DNA of 64,000 nucleotides, taken from NCBI RefSeq assembly GCF_008298015.1, contig NZ_VTPX01000007.1:1-64000 (forward strand). The letters are read 5' to 3'. The DNA is from Salinicola corii (GTDB taxonomy: Bacteria > Pseudomonadota > Gammaproteobacteria > Pseudomonadales > Halomonadaceae). The notes under the pieces were generated by a model. The model saw nothing but the letters and a program-made list of their open reading frames with translations, ran no database searches and had not been told where the DNA came from. Shown piece after piece: positions 20,506 through 37,525 of this stretch (position 1 is its first letter; each line of letters begins with the position of its first letter). The position numbers and the translations under genes are program-made.

Positions 20506-22257
20506 ATGCTGCAACCCGTTTCCCGCCAGAGCGACCTGACCCTCGAACCCGAACAGACGCCGCCACGCCCGGCGGATGTCAGCACCTTCGCCCCGCTGGG
20601 CGTCCCCGCCTTCCGCATGATCTGGATCGCCAACCTGTTCGCCAACCTCGGGTTGTGGGCGCAGTCGGTGGCGGCGGCCTGGGTGGTGACCTCGAACGAC
20701 GGCGGCGCGGTGGCGGTGGCGATGATCCAGGTCGCGGCGGCGCTGCCGCTGGTGCTGATGTCGATCGTCACCGGCGTGATCGCCGACAACTACGATCGCC
20801 GCAAGGTGATGCTGTTCGGGCTGGGCATCGAAGTGCTCGGCGGGCTGTTCGTCACCGCGATCGCCTTTCTGGACCTGCTCTCGCCGGCACTGCTGATCGC
20901 CTCGATTCTGTGCGTCTCCATCGGCGGTGCGATCACCACGCCGGCCTGGCAGGCGGCGGTCAACGAACAGGTACCGCGCAATCTGGTCTCGAGCGCGGTT
21001 CTGCTCAACAGCGTCAACTACAACGCCGCCCGCGCCATCGGCCCGGCCATCGGCGGGCTGCTGCTGGCCGCGGTGGGTCCGGCGTGGATCTTCCTGCTCA
21101 ACGTGCTCTGCTTCTGCGGGCTGATCGCCGCGCTGTGGCGCTGGAAGCGTGCCGTGCTGCCCAAGTCGCTGCCGCCGGAAAGGATCTGGGAAGGGGTCAA
21201 GGCGGCGCTGCATTTCGTCCAGTACTCCAGCGTCACCCGGCTGGTGATGATGCGCTCGTTCATCTTCGGGATCTCCGCCAGCGCACTGTGGGCACTGCTG
21301 CCGCTGCTGGCCCATCAGCATCCCAGCGGCAGTGCCTCGCTCTACGGCTATATGCTCGGGGGCCTCGGCATCGGGGCCATCGCCGGCAGCACGCTGGTCA
21401 ACCGGGCGCGCCAGCGGGTCGGCAGCAGCCGCCTGATCAGTTTCTCCGCCATGCTGCTGGGTCTGGTGATGCTGGCACTGGGCGGTCTCGATACATTGTG
21501 GGTGCTGTTCCCGGCACTCATCGTCGGCGGCAGCTGCTGGATCGCGGCGGTGGCATCCTACAACTCCTCGGTACAGATCCTGGTACCGGACTGGGTCAAG
21601 GCGCGGGCGCTGGCGCTGTATCAGACCGCGCTCTACGCCGGGCTGACGCTGGGCTCGCTGCTGTGGGGGCAACTGGCCGACGGGCTGGGGGTCCAGATGG
21701 CGCTGATGCTGGCCGGCACGCTGCTGATCGTTTCGGCGCTGCTGCTGCTTCCCTCCAGGCTGCCGAACCTGGACGCCGGCGATCTGGTCGAGGCGCCGGA
21801 AGCCCACACCGATCGCCCCGATTTCGAGTTCGACCCGGCGCGGGGCTCGGTGATGGTGACAGTCGAGTACCGCATCGACGGTGACCACCTGCGGGAATTC
21901 GCCCGCGCGGTCCGCCCGCTTCGCCGGCTGCGGCTGCGCAATGGCGCCAAGCGCTGGTCGCTCTATCGGGATGTCGTCGATCGCGACCTGTGGCAGGAGG
22001 TCTTCCTGGTGCCCAACTGGCTGCAGCATCTGCGCATGCTGGATCGGTTGACCCTGGCCGACCGCGCCATCATCGATCGGGTCACGGCGCTGCACAGCGG
22101 CCCGGAGGCGCCCCGCCTGCGTCACGGCGTCAGCTATCGCTCGTCGCGGCACGCCCAGCCTGCCTTGACGCCACACCAGACCGAACCGCCCACCGACGAG
22201 TCGGCCGCAGACCGTTCGCTGGATACGACCGCGCCGTGGCCCCAGGAGAGAACATGA
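20506..22257 (+). CDS. MFS exporter with C-terminal ABM-like domain, EntS type
   Basis: A 583-residue protein: an MFS domain with about 12 membrane spans (residues 35-425; DNYDRRKVMLFG between helices 2 and 3 is the MFS A-like motif), followed by a soluble tail (about 445-560) resembling an antibiotic-biosynthesis-monooxygenase ferredoxin-like fold (VMVTVEYRIDGDHLREFARAV). MFS_3/EntS-type carriers export siderophores such as enterobactin; here export of the hydroxamate siderophore is a reasonable guess. The ATG at 20506 was chosen over a TTG 54 bases upstream. Its stop overlaps the recQ start (ATGA). Confidence 0.7.
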   Translation: MLQPVSRQSDLTLEPEQTPPRPADVSTFAPLGVPAFRMIWIANLFANLGLWAQSVAAAWVVTSNDGGAVAVAMIQVAAALPLVLMSIVTGVIADNYDRRKVMLFGLGIEVLGGLFVTAIAFLDLLSPALLIASILCVSIGGAITTPAWQAAVNEQVPRNLVSSAVLLNSVNYNAARAIGPAIGGLLLAAVGPAWIFLLNVLCFCGLIAALWRWKRAVLPKSLPPERIWEGVKAALHFVQYSSVTRLVMMRSFIFGISASALWALLPLLAHQHPSGSASLYGYMLGGLGIGAIAGSTLVNRARQRVGSSRLISFSAMLLGLVMLALGGLDTLWVLFPALIVGGSCWIAAVASYNSSVQILVPDWVKARALALYQTALYAGLTLGSLLWGQLADGLGVQMALMLAGTLLIVSALLLLPSRLPNLDAGDLVEAPEAHTDRPDFEFDPARGSVMVTVEYRIDGDHLREFARAVRPLRRLRLRNGAKRWSLYRDVVDRDLWQEVFLVPNWLQHLRMLDRLTLADRAIIDRVTALHSGPEAPRLRHGVSYRSSRHAQPALTPHQTEPPTDESAADRSLDTTAPWPQERT

Positions 22258-24266
22258 CCCAGGCGAACATCGAAAGCGCCCGCAAGACCCTGCTCGACGT
22301 ATTCGGCTTCCCGGCCTTTCGCGGCGGCCAGCAGGCCGTCGTCGAACGCGTCATCGCCGGTCGCTCCACCGCGGCGATCTTCGCCACCGGCGCCGGCAAG
22401 TCGCTCTGCTATCAGCTGCCGGCGCTTCACCTGCCGCATCTCACCCTGGTGGTCTCGCCGCTGCTGGCCTTGATGCAGGATCAGTTGGCCTTTCTCCAGC
22501 GTCACGGCTTGGCGGCCGCGAGCCTCGACTCCACCCAGGATCGCGACACCGCCCGCGAGATCATGGAGCGCGCCCGCAGCGGCGAGTTGAAGATCCTGAT
22601 GGTGTCGGTGGAGCGGCTCAAGAACGAACGCTTTCGCCACTTCCTGCGTCAGGTGGCGATCTCACTGCTGGTCATCGACGAAGCGCACTGCATCTCCGAG
22701 TGGGGACACAATTTCCGGCCCGACTATCTGAAGCTACCGGATTACCAGCGCGAGTTCGGCATCCCCCAGGCGCTGCTGCTGACCGCCACCGCCACGCCCG
22801 CGGTAATCGACGACATGCGCGCCAAGTTCGCCATCGCCGAGGAGGATGTCGTCACCACCGGCTTCTATCGCGACAACCTGGAGCTGCTGGTGCAGCCGGT
22901 AGAGGCCGATAACCGCCTGCCGGCACTGGTCGACTGGCTCGTCCCGCAGCAGCAGCCTGGCCGTGAAGCGCCCACCATCGTCTACGTCACGCTGCAGCAG
23001 ACCGCCGAGTCGGTGGCCGGGGCGCTGGCGAGCCGGGGCCTTTCGGCCCGCGCCTATCATGCCGGCCTCGACAGCGAGACCCGGGACCGGATCCAGCAGG
23101 GCTTCATGGACGGCGAGATTCCCTGCATCGTCGCCACCATCGCCTTCGGCATGGGGATCGACAAGGGCGATATCCGCAACGTCATTCACTACGACCTGCC
23201 CAAGTCGATCGAGAACTACAGCCAGGAGATCGGGCGCGCCGGGCGTGACGGCAAGCCGTCGCGCTGCCTGATGCTGGCCGGTCGGGACGGCCTGCGCGTG
23301 CTCGAGAACTTCGTCTACGGCGATACCCCGGAGCGCGAGGGTATCCGCCACGTGCTGAGCGAGATCGCCGACGCCGGCCGCCAATCGGCGCGCCAGTGGC
23401 CGGTGCTGCTCAACACGCTCTCCCGCGACAGCAACGTCCGTCTGCTGCCGTTGAAGACGCTGCTCGTCCGGCTCGAGATGCATGGCGTCATCGTACCCCG
23501 CTTCGCCTACCTGGCCGAGTACCGGCTGCGCTATCTCGACGAGACCGCCAACCTGGTCGTGCGCTTCGAGGGCGAGCGCGCCGACTTCGTACGCCTGCTC
23601 GTCGACAACATCGCCATCGCCAAGACCTGGGGCACGGTGGATTTCGAACGACTCCATCGGGCCGGCGAAGCGGCGGGGCTCGACGCCTCGCGCGCGAGGG
23701 TCATCACCGCACTGGAGTATTTCCAGGACAAGGGCTGGGTGGTGCTGGAAGGCAAACGCATGACCGACGTCTACGAGGTGCGCCAGCCCAAATTCGACAT
23801 CGACGCTCTGACCGATCGACTGCTGGCGGAGAGCCAAGCCCGGGAGCAGGCGGAGATAGACCGCCTCCAGGCCATGCTGGACCTGTTCGAATCGGACACC
23901 TGCCTGACCCGACGGCTCGCCGCTTACTTCGGCGACACGCGATTCGAGCACGATGACGCGCCAATGGACTGCGGCCATTGCTCGGTCTGCCATGGCCATA
24001 TCGCGCGTCTGCCGGGGGCGCCGTCCTTGCCCGAGCTAACCGATGCCGACTTCGCCCGCCAGGCCGGGCCGTTCATCGAACGCCACCGCGAACAGCTCGG
24101 GACGTTGCCCGGCGCGCAGCGCATCGCCCATTTCCTGTGCGGACTGTCGATGCCAGTGTTCACGCCGCTCAAGGCGCGGCAGTTGAACGGGTTCGGCGTC
24201 CACGAGCAGCGACCCTACCCCGAAGTCAGGGCGTGGGTCGAGGAACAGATAGCCCAAGCAGGCTGA
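22254..24266 (+). CDS. recQ: RecQ-family ATP-dependent DNA helicase
   Basis: A 670-residue 3'-5' DNA helicase. Motif I ATGAGKS (44-50), DEAH (142-145), HNFRPDYLKL just after, QEIGRAGRDG (motif VI) and a C-terminal zinc site with CGHCSVC (C573, C576, C579) and an earlier C in SDTCLTRR. Motif I has A for the usual G (TGAGKS rather than TGGGKS). A C-terminal helical extension (about 585-670) may be a divergent HRDC region. CAGGAGAG precedes the ATG, which overlaps the MFS stop by 4 bases, an unexpected coupling of exporter and helicase. The SOS-type box follows 44 bases after its stop. Confidence 0.85.
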   Translation: MTQANIESARKTLLDVFGFPAFRGGQQAVVERVIAGRSTAAIFATGAGKSLCYQLPALHLPHLTLVVSPLLALMQDQLAFLQRHGLAAASLDSTQDRDTAREIMERARSGELKILMVSVERLKNERFRHFLRQVAISLLVIDEAHCISEWGHNFRPDYLKLPDYQREFGIPQALLLTATATPAVIDDMRAKFAIAEEDVVTTGFYRDNLELLVQPVEADNRLPALVDWLVPQQQPGREAPTIVYVTLQQTAESVAGALASRGLSARAYHAGLDSETRDRIQQGFMDGEIPCIVATIAFGMGIDKGDIRNVIHYDLPKSIENYSQEIGRAGRDGKPSRCLMLAGRDGLRVLENFVYGDTPEREGIRHVLSEIADAGRQSARQWPVLLNTLSRDSNVRLLPLKTLLVRLEMHGVIVPRFAYLAEYRLRYLDETANLVVRFEGERADFVRLLVDNIAIAKTWGTVDFERLHRAGEAAGLDASRARVITALEYFQDKGWVVLEGKRMTDVYEVRQPKFDIDALTDRLLAESQAREQAEIDRLQAMLDLFESDTCLTRRLAAYFGDTRFEHDDAPMDCGHCSVCHGHIARLPGAPSLPELTDADFARQAGPFIERHREQLGTLPGAQRIAHFLCGLSMPVFTPLKARQLNGFGVHEQRPYPEVRAWVEEQIAQAG

Positions 24267-24310
24267 ACGCTTCAACCATTCCAACTTGTCGATCTCGGCG
24301 TTCTCGAATA

Positions 24311-24326
24311 CTGTATATTCAGACAG
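24311..24326. promoter_or_regulatory. LexA (SOS) box
   Basis: CTGTATATTCAGACAG fits CTG-N10-CAG with a TATAT-like left half, the LexA consensus of gammaproteobacteria. It lies 29 bases before the radical SAM start, overlapping the expected promoter, so the next two genes are probably DNA-damage induced. Confidence 0.7.
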
Positions 24327-24354
24327 TATTCGAGACGGGCCACAGGATTGCCGC

Positions 24355-25614
24355 ATGGAACTGATCGACAAGCTCTCCATCCTCGCCGATGCCGCCAAGT
24401 ACGATGCCTCTTGCGCCAGCAGCGGCGCGCCCAAGCGCTCGTCTCGCGGCAAGACGGGGCTCGGTTCGTCGAACGGCATGGGGATCTGTCATAGCTTCAC
24501 CCCGGACGGGCGCTGCGTGTCGCTGCTCAAGGTGTTGCTGACCAACTTCTGCCTGTTCGACTGCCAGTACTGCGTCAACCGGCGCTCGAGCAACGTGCCG
24601 CGAGCACGCTTCACGCCGGAGGAAGTCGTCCGCCTGACGCTGTCGTTCTACCGTCGCAATACCATCAGCGGGCTGTTTTTGAGTTCCGGGATCATTCGCT
24701 CCAGCGACTACACCATGGAGCAGCTGATCCAGGTGGCCCGGCTGCTGCGGGAGACGCACCAGTTCCGGGGCTACATCCATCTCAAGGCGATCCCGGAGGC
24801 GGATCCCAGGCTGCTCGAGGAAGCCGGGCGCTACGCTGACCGGCTCAGCGCGAACATCGAATTGCCGACCCTGACCGGCCTGAAGACGCTGGCCCCGGAA
24901 AAGGAGCTCGACACCATCCACTCGGCCATGAGCCACATGCGCCAGCGCATCGATGCCGCCAACGACGATGCCGAGCGGGACGCGAAGCGTCTGCCGCGCA
25001 GCGCCAACCCCAAGCGCATGGCGCCACGCTACGCACCCGGCGGCCAGAGCACGCAGATGATCGTCGGTGCCGATGCCACCGATGACCGCACCATCCTCCA
25101 GTCCGCCCAGCACCTCTACCGCGACTTCCGCCTCAAGCGCGTCTACTACTCGGCGTTCAGCCCGATTCCGGAGCGCCCCGCAGGGCTGCCCCAGGCCGCG
25201 CCGCCGTTGCTGCGCGAGCACCGGCTCTACCAGGCCGACTTCCTGATCCGTGGCTACGGCTTCCGGGCCGAGGAGTTGCTGAACGCACCGGGCAACCTGG
25301 ACCTGGAGATCGATCCCAAGCTGGCCTGGGCACTGGCACACCGCGACGATTTTCCGGTCGACCTCAACCGCGCCGAGCCGGCGATGATTGCCCGCGTTCC
25401 GGGCATCGGTCTGCGCAGCGTGCAACGGCTGGTCGATCTGCGGCGGCTGCGGCGCATCCGCTATCAGGACCTGGTGGCGCTGCGGTGTCGCCTGGAGACC
25501 CTGCGGCCATTCGTGGTGACCCAGGACTATCGCCCCACCGATGCCCAGCGCGACAGCTCGCGCCTGCGCCAGAGCCTGACCCAACCCCAGCCGGCGCAGA
25601 TGGCGTTGTGGTAG
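24355..25614 (+). CDS. Radical SAM protein, putative DNA repair/modification
   Basis: A 419-residue radical SAM enzyme with the cluster motif C66-x3-C70-x2-C73 (CLFDCQYC), a SAM-binding SSGIIRSS stretch (about 116), and a C-terminal helix-hairpin-helix-like segment (IARVPGIGLRSVQRLVDLRRL, about 344-364) of the kind that binds DNA. This is the family annotated as putative DNA modification/repair radical SAM protein (TIGR03916), always paired with a TIGR03915/DUF4130 protein, here the next gene 26 bases away. The LexA box upstream supports a role in damage repair. The lesion or base acted on is unknown. The ATG at 24355 gives the usual family start MELIDKL. Confidence 0.8.
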   Translation: MELIDKLSILADAAKYDASCASSGAPKRSSRGKTGLGSSNGMGICHSFTPDGRCVSLLKVLLTNFCLFDCQYCVNRRSSNVPRARFTPEEVVRLTLSFYRRNTISGLFLSSGIIRSSDYTMEQLIQVARLLRETHQFRGYIHLKAIPEADPRLLEEAGRYADRLSANIELPTLTGLKTLAPEKELDTIHSAMSHMRQRIDAANDDAERDAKRLPRSANPKRMAPRYAPGGQSTQMIVGADATDDRTILQSAQHLYRDFRLKRVYYSAFSPIPERPAGLPQAAPPLLREHRLYQADFLIRGYGFRAEELLNAPGNLDLEIDPKLAWALAHRDDFPVDLNRAEPAMIARVPGIGLRSVQRLVDLRRLRRIRYQDLVALRCRLETLRPFVVTQDYRPTDAQRDSSRLRQSLTQPQPAQMALW

Positions 25615-25640
25615 CGCCGCCTTCCGCAGGAGATACCGCC

Positions 25641-26561
25641 ATGCGCAATGCCTCGCCGCTTCCGCCGTCCTGCGCTGCCTGGGCCAACGATTTCGACGAG
25701 TGGCGCGCCCAGGCGCGCCGACTGCTCCACGCCGGGGTGCCACCGGCCAGTGTGACCTGGCACGACGGCAACGACGGTCATGACGATCTCTTTTCCTCGC
25801 TGGAGCTGCCGCCGACGTTGCCAGGCTCCACGCCGGCAGCGATCCGGATCGGTCGCGACCAGCTGACGCTGCTGGGTAACGCCGCGCGCTATCGTGCGGA
25901 CGGCCACGACCAGCCGCGCTGGCCATTGCTGTACCGGGTGTTGTGGCGATGGGCCCGGGGCGACGCCGCGGCCATGCATCCCGCCGATAGGGATGGCCGC
26001 GTGCTGCATCAGCGCTGGCACGCGGTCAAGCGGGAAGCCCACCACATGCATGCGTTCCTGCGCTTCCATCGCCGCGACGAGGCCCGAGGTGAACGCTACG
26101 TGGCATGGTTCGAGCCCGCCCATGACGTGCTCGACCTGGCCGCGGAGCACTTTGCCGACCGCATGGGCGGTTCACGCTGGATCATCGCCACGCCCCACGG
26201 TGGCGTAGGCTGGGATGGCTCGGCGCTGGACTATCGCGCTCCCTGCCCGGCGGCCTGGACCGAGGAGGCCAGGACGGCCGCCGAGCGCGCCAACGCCGAC
26301 GAGGAGCACGACCTGTGGCGAACCTATTTCGTCAGCACCTTCAATCCCGCACGCCTCAATCACAGGGTGATGACCCAGCACATGCCGCAGCGGTTCTGGC
26401 GTCATCTCAGCGAGGGCGATCTGATTCCGGAGTTGGAGGCCAGGGCGCGCCATGGTGGGCAACGCCTGGCCCAGGAGAGCAGCGTGGGCCGGCGCAAGGG
26501 CAAGGCGCTCCCGGACGCCAGGACCACCCTCTCCCAGCCATCGCCGGACGACGAAGGCTAG
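25641..26561 (+). CDS. DUF4130/TIGR03915 partner of radical SAM protein
   Basis: A 306-residue soluble protein. It contains the family features LYRVLWRWARGD, HAVKREAHHMHAFLRF and YVAWFEPAHDVLDLAAEHFADRM (middle third), then a WRTYFVSTFNPARLNHRVMTQHMPQRFW block before a basic, variable tail. In other bacteria this domain is found alone beside the radical SAM partner or fused to a UdgX-like uracil-DNA glycosylase; here no glycosylase domain is attached. AGGAGA precedes the ATG at 25641. It shares the SOS-controlled operon. Biochemical activity is not established. Confidence 0.75.
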   Translation: MRNASPLPPSCAAWANDFDEWRAQARRLLHAGVPPASVTWHDGNDGHDDLFSSLELPPTLPGSTPAAIRIGRDQLTLLGNAARYRADGHDQPRWPLLYRVLWRWARGDAAAMHPADRDGRVLHQRWHAVKREAHHMHAFLRFHRRDEARGERYVAWFEPAHDVLDLAAEHFADRMGGSRWIIATPHGGVGWDGSALDYRAPCPAAWTEEARTAAERANADEEHDLWRTYFVSTFNPARLNHRVMTQHMPQRFWRHLSEGDLIPELEARARHGGQRLAQESSVGRRKGKALPDARTTLSQPSPDDEG

Positions 26562-35843: not shown

Positions 35844-36794
35844 TCAGCGCCATAGCGCGAGTTGACGCAGATAGGCTCGCCGCGCTTGATGCGGAGAGAC
35901 CGGGGAGAGTCTTATCGAGGTGCCGGGAGCGCACTGCCCCAGGCGCGCGCAGGCAATCGGCGATAACGCCCCGAGACGCGGATAGCCACCGATGGTCTGC
36001 CGGTCGTTGAGCAGAATGATCGGTTGGCCATCCGGCGGAACCTGGACCGCGCCCAGCGGAATTCCCTCCGAGATCATGCCCTCCAACCGACAATGCAACG
36101 CCGGGCCTGTCAGGCGAACGCCCATGCGATCGGCTCGGCTGTCCACCTGCCAGGCCTGATTGAAGGCCGCGTACAGACTGGCACCATCGAAGTGCGCGAT
36201 CTGCGCCCCGGTGACCAATTCGAGCGTGGCTTCGTCCTGCGGCATGGCCATCGCGCATGGCATTTCGCGGGTCTCGGCGGCCACCGAGGCCGCGGTCAAC
36301 CGATCGCCGACCCGAAGCGCGCTTCCCCGCCCGTCGAGACCGCCCAGCTGTTCGCGGGCGACGGTCGAGAGGCTCCCCATGAACGGCTCGGCATCGATCC
36401 CGCCCGGCAACGCCAGGTAGGCACGCAGCCCCGCCCTGGGCTGGTCGAACGCCAGCACCTGTCCCGGTTCGAGAACGAAACTGCCATTGGCGGGCAGCGT
36501 CTCGCCATCCCGCGTGGCGCCGAGATCGGCACCCGCGATGGCCACCGCCATCCTGCCCGTGGCCTTCAGCGTCAGCCCACCCATGGCGATCTCGATGCCG
36601 GCGGCATCCGGGGCGTTGCCGAGCAGCCAGTTGGCCCAGCCCAGCGCGATCCAGTCCAGCGCTCCCCCCTGAGTCACGCCGAGATGGCGGGCCCCGAAGC
36701 GACCGGCATCCTCTACCAGCGCCAGCGGCCCCGTGCCCTCGACGACCAGAGCGGCATTGCCACTCGCCGCCCGGGAGATTTCCGGCGTCGCCAT
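35844..36794 (-). CDS. pxpC: 5-oxoprolinase subunit PxpC
   Basis: A 316-residue protein of the biotin-dependent carboxyltransferase/KipA family. Typical blocks: VEDAGRFGARHLGVTQGGALD (15-40), AYLALPGGID (about 130), MGVRLTGPAL and EGIPLGAVQVPPDGQPIILLNDRQTIGGYPRLG (about 235-275). With PxpA and PxpB it forms the ATP-dependent prokaryotic 5-oxoprolinase, which opens pyroglutamate to glutamate. Its ATG at 36794 overlaps the pxpB stop. Some genomes fuse B and C; here they are separate. Confidence 0.85.
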   Translation of the reverse strand: MATPEISRAASGNAALVVEGTGPLALVEDAGRFGARHLGVTQGGALDWIALGWANWLLGNAPDAAGIEIAMGGLTLKATGRMAVAIAGADLGATRDGETLPANGSFVLEPGQVLAFDQPRAGLRAYLALPGGIDAEPFMGSLSTVAREQLGGLDGRGSALRVGDRLTAASVAAETREMPCAMAMPQDEATLELVTGAQIAHFDGASLYAAFNQAWQVDSRADRMGVRLTGPALHCRLEGMISEGIPLGAVQVPPDGQPIILLNDRQTIGGYPRLGALSPIACARLGQCAPGTSIRLSPVSPHQARRAYLRQLALWR

Positions 36795-37525
36795 CAGCGC
36801 TCCTCCAGCGGCGTGGTGTCGCCGCCCTGTTCGATGAAAGCCTCGCGGCTGATCGGTTCGAATCGCACCCGATCGCCCGGGCGAAACAGGCTGATTTCGT
36901 CGCGCTCGCGATCGAACAGCTCGACGGCGGTGCGGCCCAGGATGTTCCAGCCACCCGGCGAGCGCATCGAATAGATGGCGGTCTGGCGTTCGGCGATGCC
37001 TACGCTGCCCGCCGCTACCTTCCGTCTCGGCGTCTTCAGCCGCGGCGTGGCCAGCGCCTCCTCGACCATGCCCATGAACGCGTAGCCTGGCGAAAAGCCG
37101 AGGGCGAAGGCGCAATAGTCGCGACCGGCGTGGCGACGCACGATCTCGTCGGTATCGACGCCGAGGCGCTCGGCGATCCTGGTGAGTTCGGGGCCGACAC
37201 TGTCGTCGTACCACACCGGGATGCGATGCTCCCGCCCGGTCTCGGTGGAGGCCGGCTTCAATCCCCGCAGGGCGTCGTCGATCCACTGCCTGGCCTCGCG
37301 CTGGGAGAGCCGGGCCACGTCGTAGTGCACCAGCAGCGTGGTGTAGGACGGCACCAGGTCGATCAGCGCCTCGCCGAAGCGTTCCCGCAGCGCGTTGTCG
37401 GCGGCCAGGATCCAGGGCATGTGGGCCTCGTCGATGGCGGCGAACAGCCTGACGATCAGGGCGTCCATGCCGACCGTTTCCATTCGAAAAGAGGGCGCAG
37501 TAGAGAGGGAAGGAGACTGACTCAT
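36794..37525 (-). CDS. pxpB: 5-oxoprolinase subunit PxpB
   Basis: A 243-residue KipI/allophanate hydrolase subunit 1-type protein. Family signatures: [11 protein letters not shown] (about 65), [13 protein letters not shown] (about 110), [13 protein letters not shown] (about 150), [37 protein letters not shown] (about 170-206). It carries the ATP-dependent part of 5-oxoprolinase with PxpC. The ATG at 37525 overlaps the pxpA stop, so all three genes are translationally coupled in the order A-B-C. Confidence 0.85.

What the first reader, a model, noticed from the sequence alone, without database searches (positions are those of the whole stretch)
24311..26561. SOS-box-controlled radical SAM / DUF4130 pair next to RecQ
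Seen: CTGTATATTCAGACAG at 24311-24326 (CTG-N10-CAG), 29 bases before a radical SAM gene with CLFDCQYC and a C-terminal helix-hairpin-helix, followed by a DUF4130 gene; RecQ ends 44 bases upstream of the box. Known: TIGR03916/TIGR03915 proteins are paired and only predicted to act in DNA repair or modification; DUF4130 can be fused to UdgX-type glycosylases. Inference: this is a damage-induced repair module whose lesion is unknown, and the LexA box is direct sequence support for that.
Basis: partly seen in the sequence, partly recalled or inferred. Interest (0 to 1): 0.75.

Follow-up and report, generated by a model that had tools for sequence, protein, structure and literature searches.

The report
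SOS-controlled, clamp-tagged radical SAM repair pair
A pair of bacterial genes of unknown repair chemistry carries the control switch of the DNA-damage (SOS) response in several bacterial groups, and its radical enzyme ends in a short tag that looks like the docking signal for the replication sliding clamp, which suggests where in the cell it works.

Summary
A LexA-type box (TACTGTATATTCAGACAGTA, 24309-24328) lies 28 bases before a TIGR03916 radical SAM gene followed by a TIGR03915/DUF4130 gene. The genome holds four perfect TACTGT-N8-ACAGTA sites: recA, imuA, a PA0069-family radical SAM gene and this operon (reversed control 0). Orthologues carry their own lineage's box: CTGT-N8-ACAG in 63 of 85 gamma/beta loci (80 of 85 with one mismatch; controls 1 and 29 of 822), the alphaproteobacterial repeat in 19 of 22 (controls 4 of 322). 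SOS control is not new: a UDG-COG4277 operon, very probably this kind, is reported as SOS-regulated elsewhere. RecQ adjacency was seen only in this genus. New here: the radical SAM protein ends in a clamp-binding-like peptide (QMALW; Q in 67 of 67 aligned; strict motif 61 of 80, other ORFs 2 of 1094), and the PA0069 family ends alike (30 of 30). The partner lacks UDG in this genus, though UDG fusions exist in sister genera. Best reading: an SOS-induced, sliding-clamp-tethered lesion-processing complex; lesion and clamp contact are untested.

The parts
24309..24328 (.). LexA (SOS) box TACTGTATATTCAGACAGTA
   Evidence: exact match, 1 of 4 such sites in the genome; conserved upstream of orthologues
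24302..24335 (.). extended perfect dyad, 13-bp arms around an 8-base centre; function unexplained
   Evidence: RNA fold z-score -7.15; outward pairing above shifted control across 83 loci; no terminator pattern
24355..25614 (+). TIGR03916 radical SAM protein (419 aa): CX3CX2C at C66/C70/C73, further invariant C20, C45, H46, C54, C-terminal helix-hairpin-helix
   Evidence: 538.8 bits; invariants in 67 sequences; AlphaFold2 model pLDDT 87.6
25597..25611 (+). C-terminal beta-clamp-binding-like peptide QMALW (residues 415-419)
   Evidence: Q415 67/67, L418 64/67; strict motif in 61 of 80 tails; other ORFs 2 of 1094
25641..26561 (+). TIGR03915 / DUF4130 protein (306 aa), no UDG domain here
   Evidence: 188 bits, 127.9 bits; a DUF4130 relative found downstream in 116 of 118 loci, the other 2 cut by contig ends
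22254..24266 (+). RecQ-family helicase, neighbour only (not judged part of the module)
   Evidence: TIGR00614 363 bits; 403 bits to TIGR01389 recQ, below that model's cut-off of 640; adjacency seen only in this genus

Best explanation
The operon is a LexA-repressed, DNA-damage-induced two-protein DNA-lesion-processing unit that works on the sliding clamp. After damage LexA is cleaved and the pair is made (inferred from the conserved boxes). The radical SAM protein binds DNA through its helix-hairpin-helix and docks on the beta clamp through its C-terminal QMALW peptide (inferred from sequence), as the SOS polymerases Pol II, Pol IV, Pol V and ImuB do. There, with DUF4130, it performs 5'-deoxyadenosyl-radical chemistry on a base or backbone lesion met at or behind the fork (inferred; lesion unknown). 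UdgX, fused to DUF4130 in many lineages but absent here, is an optional front end and not the core activity.
For: Shown: four perfect 20-base boxes in the genome, at recA, imuA, a PA0069-family radical SAM gene and this operon, reversed control 0. Lineage-matched boxes upstream of orthologues against control ORFs in the same loci. A DUF4130 relative downstream in 116 of 118 loci; among 75 complete named partners 58 overlap the radical SAM gene with automatically chosen starts, 8 of the 75 not read as M. C-terminal Q-[LM]-x-L-[FWLI] in 61 of 80 named proteins, at most 5 in 2000 shuffles, 0 of 80 elsewhere in the same proteins; Q415 invariant next to a mostly variable linker; similar tails in single Bacteroidota, Bacillota and Gemmatimonadota records and two Acinetobacter records. 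DinB of the same genome has QLGLF near its end. Published consensus QL(S/D)LF (passages) and ImuB QLPLWG (passage). ImuA co-occurs: 9 of 11 against 104 of 358 class genomes, Fisher p 0.0006, not corrected for kinship. UDG-less partners: 15 of 15 complete ones of the genus (L023, a second copy, apart), 9 of 9 of other loci of the family, 24 of 24 named Gammaproteobacteria outside Xanthomonadales, 22 of them Pseudomonas or Stutzerimonas; no UdgX passes the cut-off in this genome.
Against: No binding, induction or phenotype data. Clamp peptides are short and loose, and binding is inferred from sequence alone. 19 of 80 named tails miss the strict pattern and 7 of 80 even the loose one; in the four Verrucomicrobia the motif is internal and of QLEFDF type. 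UDG fusions occur in the window's own family (3 of 3 readable partners of two sister genera, L066, L067, L069), so UDG is not foreign to this lineage. The radical SAM model's best fold matches are, as I recall them, enzymes acting on small molecules, RNA or proteins, not DNA. The DUF4130 fold has no solved relative at E <= 0.001. Xanthomonadales lack all three LexA-type boxes tested (0 of 7) and have another palindrome instead in 5 of 7; 3 of 9 unnamed class loci also lack the gamma box. Many loci are congeners, so counts are not independent.
Confidence: 0.7

Rival explanations
1. A base-excision module: the pair serves a UDG, as proposed in print for the UDG-COG4277 operon (there: base excision, perhaps addressing ribonucleotide misincorporation by SOS polymerases).
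For: 41 of 75 complete named partners are at least 440 aa long, all 41 with a GEQPG-type UDG motif and 36 with a KxRxH loop; TIGR03914 matches of 271 and 242 bits in the two tested; UDG fusions in two sister genera of the window's family; published proposal.
Against: The box and the pair are conserved where no UDG is fused: this genus, other loci of the family and 24 of 24 named Gammaproteobacteria outside Xanthomonadales; no UdgX over the cut-off in this genome. Uracil excision alone needs no radical SAM enzyme.
Confidence: 0.18
2. An SplB-like direct-reversal photoproduct lyase for UV lesions, working without any clamp.
For: PMC3765255 (passage) associates DUF4130 with SplB-like radical SAM photolyases; another radical SAM family (PA0069) shares the SOS box in this genome.
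Against: No SplB family is matched at E <= 0.001; the best fold matches are HydE, with BioB and LIAS among the next, and SplB is not among the 50 rows shown; the clamp-like tail would be unexplained.
Confidence: 0.15
3. A DNA-modifying enzyme pair (for example damage-induced base modification) and not a repair enzyme.
For: Family name 'DNA modification/repair'; radical SAM enzymes often alkylate or thiolate (general knowledge); HHH for DNA contact.
Against: No PADLOC match for either protein; SOS control in several classes favours repair or tolerance. Recurrent neighbours were clustered but not annotated, so a modification partner is not excluded.
Confidence: 0.1
4. The LexA box is a chance or inherited sequence without function.
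For: CTGT-N8-ACAG alone is common (20 in the genome against 39 for the reversed pattern).
Against: 20-base form 4 against 0; conservation and change of box type across lineages.
Confidence: 0.02

Closest known systems
SOS-regulated UDG-COG4277 (COG1573-COG4277) two-gene operon, reported in Bacteroidetes and cited there for Verrucomicrobia and Alphaproteobacteria (PMC8565304, passages seen)
   Same: Very probably the same gene pair (COG4277 = radical SAM/HHH protein is my recall, not a tool result); SOS control.
   Different: Here no UDG domain and no UdgX over the cut-off in the genome; gammaproteobacterial box; published as base excision, whereas the conserved core here is radical SAM + DUF4130; no clamp peptide is mentioned in the passages I saw.
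PA0069-family radical SAM protein (NF033668)
   Same: Radical SAM, SOS box of the same 20-base form in this genome, C-terminal clamp-like peptide (30 of 30 relatives fetched).
   Different: Different family; not beside a DUF4130 gene in this genome, whose only DUF4130 match is the window's; box within one mismatch in only 2 of 30 relatives (3 of 18 with another anchor).
ImuA-ImuB-DnaE2 mutasome and Pol IV
   Same: SOS control (imuA box here); clamp-binding motif (QLPLWG in mycobacterial ImuB, passage; QLGLF near the end of this genome's DinB).
   Different: Polymerase-based tolerance, no radical chemistry.
Spore photoproduct lyase (SplB)
   Same: Radical SAM DNA repair as a way of working.
   Different: No family match, not among the fold matches shown; partner DUF4130.

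Membership tests
TIGR03916 / TIGR03915 pair | Both models over curated cut-off in adjacent genes | tested here: met
   538.8 (343.5) and 188 (112.25) bits, 26-base gap
LexA-regulated (SOS) gene | Lineage-type LexA box close to the start codon | tested here: met
LexA-regulated (SOS) gene | LexA encoded in the genome and same box at known SOS genes | tested here: met
   LexA, recA and imuA boxes
LexA-regulated (SOS) gene | LexA binding and induction by damage | not testable with these tools
   needs bench work
Beta-clamp-binding protein | Peptide near QL(S/D)LF in a flexible, usually C-terminal position | tested here: met
   QMALW at the C-terminus, last block of residues pLDDT 56; consensus
Beta-clamp-binding protein | Physical binding to DnaN | not testable with these tools
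   needs bench work
UdgX-fused DUF4130 (TIGR03914) | UDG domain with the covalent-histidine loop | tested here: not met
   protein is 306 aa with only DUF4130 matched; TIGR03914 in genome 27.9 bits, cut-off 189.95
Spore photoproduct lyase (SplB) | Match to an SplB family model | tested here: not met
   only TIGR03916 matched at E <= 0.001 in NCBIfam
RecQ as module partner | Conserved adjacency | tested here: not met
   1 of 80 named loci, 14 of 40 unnamed, all of these in this genus

The most novel reading that the evidence does not exclude
Bacteria have a class of SOS-linked, sliding-clamp-tethered radical SAM DNA-repair enzymes, comprising at least two families (TIGR03916 with DUF4130, and PA0069). 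They bring 5'-deoxyadenosyl-radical chemistry to the replication fork to reverse or release a lesion, or a protein-DNA crosslink such as a UdgX-capped abasic site, that no known pathway handles.
Probability: 0.3. Interest if true: 0.88.

Novelty: new variant of a known kind. Interest (0 to 1): 0.63.

Why it matters
The TIGR03916/TIGR03915 pair has been called a putative repair system without a lesion or place of action. A clamp-binding-like tail found in 73 of 80 named members (loose pattern) and in the few sequences seen from other phyla gives it a probable place, the sliding clamp, and an immediate test by a five-residue deletion. SOS control without any UDG in this genus argues that uracil excision is not the core job, unlike the printed proposal. 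A second SOS-boxed radical SAM family with the same tail hints at a general principle: radical enzymes recruited to replication.

Tried and rejected
Rejected: RecQ as partner. Not found: a terminator or simple sigma-70 promoter pattern at the dyad. Led nowhere: the fold of DUF4130 (Foldseek best E 0.056, TM 0.19; the top rows are mostly DHH-type phosphoesterases, not credible); phage family library (one weak hit); PADLOC (no match for the pair; the RecQ hits there I take as generic helicase matches). Recurrent neighbours were clustered but not annotated. My first box pattern had the wrong spacing and was replaced. Sequence search of solved structures gave nothing below E 0.1 for the radical SAM protein and nothing up to E 1 for DUF4130. 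Other phyla could not be sampled systematically; four plasmid records and one phage record of other groups, a Phaeobacter plasmid and viral contigs stand in for them. The two papers cited for SOS control in Verrucomicrobia and Caulobacter are not held, so I know them only through PMC8565304. That the clamp peptide is not in print rests on listings (15 of 41 papers shown, none of those 15 with 'radical SAM'; 25 of 30 shown; 9 papers, listing only), which cover open-licence papers only. On checking, an earlier wording that the gammaproteobacterial form has no UDG was too wide: sister genera have it; I lowered the main confidence from 0.72 to 0.70 and raised the UDG rival from 0.15 to 0.18.
Full report
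What is there. The window comes from a Salinicola-like gammaproteobacterium: the nearest named orthologue returned is Salinicola acroporae at 97% identity. After a RecQ-family helicase (22254-24266) and before a minus-strand gene lie two plus-strand genes: a 419-residue TIGR03916 radical SAM protein (24355-25614) and a 306-residue TIGR03915/DUF4130 protein (25641-26561). A 20-base site TACTGTATATTCAGACAGTA lies at 24309-24328; its 16-base core ends 28 bases before the first start codon.

Is the box real? In the 4.66 Mb genome CTGT-N8-ACAG occurs 20 times and its reversed control 39 times, so the 16-base form alone proves little. Extended by two bases on each side, the site occurs four times and the reversed control never. 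The four places are recA, imuA (NF033429, 201.8 bits), a PA0069-family radical SAM gene (NF033668, 473.4 bits) and this operon (recA was recognised by reading its sequence). LexA itself is present, with a CTG-N10-CAG site before it (read).

Do orthologues keep it? I took orthologues from the same genus (16 of 18 genomes have a match, 15 over the cut-off), the family (28 of 275 over the cut-off), the class (11 of 369) and 80 named loci (the best 80 of at least 586). In a 150-base stretch at the start, an exact CTGT-N8-ACAG was found in 14 of 16 same-genus loci (the window among them), 11 of 13 loci of other genera of the family, 5 of 9 further class loci, 14 of 25 named Gammaproteobacteria and 19 of 22 Burkholderiales. 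That is 63 of 85 exact and 80 of 85 within one mismatch, against 1 of 822 and 29 of 822 in stretches before other stop-to-stop ORFs of at least 200 codons in the same loci, many of which are not genes. In Alphaproteobacteria the site is instead GTTC-N7-GTTC or its complement, exact in 19 of 22 and within one mismatch in 22 of 22 (controls 4 and 36 of 322). Two of four Verrucomicrobia have TGTTC-N4-GAACA within one mismatch (controls 0 of 26). That these are the LexA motifs of those groups, and the grouping of the records by title, is my recall. None of the seven Xanthomonadales loci has any of the three within one mismatch; five have GTCTCA-N5-TGAGAC instead, as does one unnamed class locus. 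Left out of the table: L023 (a second, UDG-fused copy in one same-genus genome, with an alphaproteobacterial-type box) and L040 (a second view of a broken copy). Many loci are congeners, so the counts are not independent, but the change of box type between classes is hard to explain without selection for SOS control.

Prior art. PMC8565304 (passages seen) describes, from comparative motif analysis, a two-gene UDG-COG4277 operon in the SOS network of Bacteroidetes and cites Verrucomicrobia and Alphaproteobacteria for the same; it calls it a putative base excision system and suggests a role against ribonucleotide misincorporation by SOS polymerases. That COG4277 is this radical SAM/HHH protein is my recall.

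What is conserved and what is not. A DUF4130 relative follows in 116 of 118 loci examined (two of the 80 named loci, L135 and L150, had been missed by my parser and were not examined here); the other two are cut by contig ends. In six loci the chosen start lies more than 200 bases downstream. Of 75 complete named partners, 58 overlap the radical SAM gene with automatically chosen starts (8 of the 75 not read as M), which suggests translational coupling. A RecQ relative is found in the fetched flanks of 1 of 80 named loci (the Salinicola) and otherwise only in the same genus. A UDG domain is fused to DUF4130 (partner of 440 aa or more, all with a GEQPG-type motif) in 41 of 75 named partners (19 of 22 Burkholderiales, 15 of 19 Alphaproteobacteria, 6 of 7 Xanthomonadales, 1 of 3 Verrucomicrobia) and in 0 of 24 other named Gammaproteobacteria, 22 of which are Pseudomonas or Stutzerimonas. 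In the window's own family the picture is mixed: no UDG in 15 of 15 complete partners of the genus and in 9 of 9 of the loci L048 and L070-L077, but UDG in 3 of 3 readable partners of two further genera. Of the 41 named fusions 36 have the KxRxH loop that I recall as the covalent loop of UdgX. This genome has no UdgX over the cut-off (27.9 bits, cut-off 189.95). The SOS-controlled core is therefore radical SAM + DUF4130.

The clamp-like tail. The C-terminus of the radical SAM protein is QMALW. In an alignment of 67 (the window and 66 of the 80 named loci; 12 near-duplicates and the two missed by the parser were left out), Q415 is invariant, position 416 is M or L in 55, 418 is L in 64 and 419 is F or W in 51, while most of residues 395-412 vary (L404, 66 of 67, is an exception). 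In all 80 named proteins the strict pattern Q[LM]xL[FWLI] is present in the last 30 residues of 61 and a looser pattern in 73; shuffled tails give at most 5 and 13 in 2000 trials, and the strict pattern occurs in 0 of 80 elsewhere in the same proteins. In other stop-to-stop ORFs of at least 250 codons from the same loci and the window it occurs at the end of 2 of 1094. One of the two ends in QLGLF, the Pol II motif, and may be Pol II (not checked); the other is an ORF of the window (35844-37286, minus) that I did not identify with a tool. The seven without the loose pattern are four Verrucomicrobia with internal forms such as QLEFDF or QMELNF, two with near variants (QPDLF, QIELPF) and one (L121) with none. 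Records from Phocaeicola (QLILEF), Acetoanaerobium (QLSIF), Acinetobacter (QLSLGF) and Phaeobacter (QLALF) carry similar peptides at or near the end, and in Gemmatirosa QLSLW lies near the end of the ORF under the match. The bacterial clamp-binding consensus is QL(S/D)LF, usually C-terminal (passages); mycobacterial ImuB uses QLPLWG (passage); DinB of this genome has QLGLF starting 13 residues before its end. No listing I saw joins radical SAM repair enzymes and the sliding clamp (listings only).

A second case in the same genome. The PA0069-family radical SAM gene with the same 20-base box ends in QQDLFG. Of 30 relatives from the class (30 loci fetched of 44 genomes over the cut-off in 143 searched), 30 end in a loose motif (Q, two residues, L or M, then F, W, L or I) and 27 in the strict one, shuffles reaching at most 7 and 2. 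Its box is within one mismatch in only 2 of the 30 (3 of 18 with another anchor), so SOS control of PA0069 is not general in the class by this test.

Structure and mechanism. The radical SAM model (pLDDT 87.6) matches the radical SAM fold of HydE best (E about 1e-7, TM-score by target about 0.5), with BioB and LIAS among the next, and SplB is not among the 50 rows shown. Three cysteines and a histidine upstream of the CX3CX2C motif (C20, C45, H46, C54) are invariant in 67 of 67; I infer a second iron-sulfur cluster, though that stretch of the model is of low confidence. The DUF4130 model (pLDDT 82.8) has no solved relative at E <= 0.001; its invariant residues include D116, H134, R141, W156, E158 and the FNPAR stretch (57 sequences), suggesting an active or nucleic-acid-binding site. 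Putting this together: LexA-controlled synthesis (strongly supported), clamp tethering (well supported by sequence, untested), DNA contact by the HHH (family knowledge), radical attack on a lesion with DUF4130 (inferred). The co-occurrence with ImuA (9 of 11 against 104 of 358; p 0.0006, not corrected for kinship) fits a role beside SOS polymerases; two of the 11 genomes with the pair have no ImuA over the cut-off, so it is not obligatory.

Verdict. Observation confirmed; interpretation right on SOS control, not supported on RecQ, not new on regulation. The added value is the clamp-like tail, its recurrence in a second radical SAM family, and the showing that the SOS-boxed form can lack any UDG.

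Noticed in passing
own genome G000:C30:160272-161300 (minus), box at 161352-161371; loci L160, L022: A PA0069-family radical SAM gene carries one of the four perfect SOS boxes of the genome and ends in QQDLFG, a clamp-binding-like peptide.
   Followed up: yes
24302-24335 and loci: The dyad around the box extends to 13-bp arms here, and is long in several other loci (e.g. L047, L080, L084, L092, L095) with different outer letters; outward positions 3-10 pair in 43% of cases against 23% in shifted controls over 83 loci. No terminator pattern found; meaning unknown.
   Followed up: partly
L042, L123, L124, L127, L134, L156, about 39 to 23 bases before the radical SAM start: Xanthomonadales loci (and one unnamed class locus, L042) share a different palindrome, GTCTCA-N5-TGAGAC, in place of a LexA-type box; a regulator unknown to me may act there.
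   Followed up: partly
L046, L049, L066, L068, L069, start of the DUF4130 protein: Some DUF4130 partners (UDG-fused where readable) begin with QxSLF, a second clamp-binding-like peptide at the N-terminus.
   Followed up: no
L023 (G016:C143): One same-genus genome has a second, UDG-fused copy with an alphaproteobacterial-type box: recent transfer or contamination.
   Followed up: no
G017:C1:319693-320738 (L038, L040); G010; G013: In the same genus one genome has a broken radical SAM gene and two have no match to the family at E <= 0.001.
   Followed up: no
L199 (record named Acinetobacter phage MD-2021a) and L197: A record labelled as phage holds the pair beside glyQ/glyS in the same order as an Acinetobacter record labelled plasmid, so the phage label looks doubtful there.
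   Followed up: no
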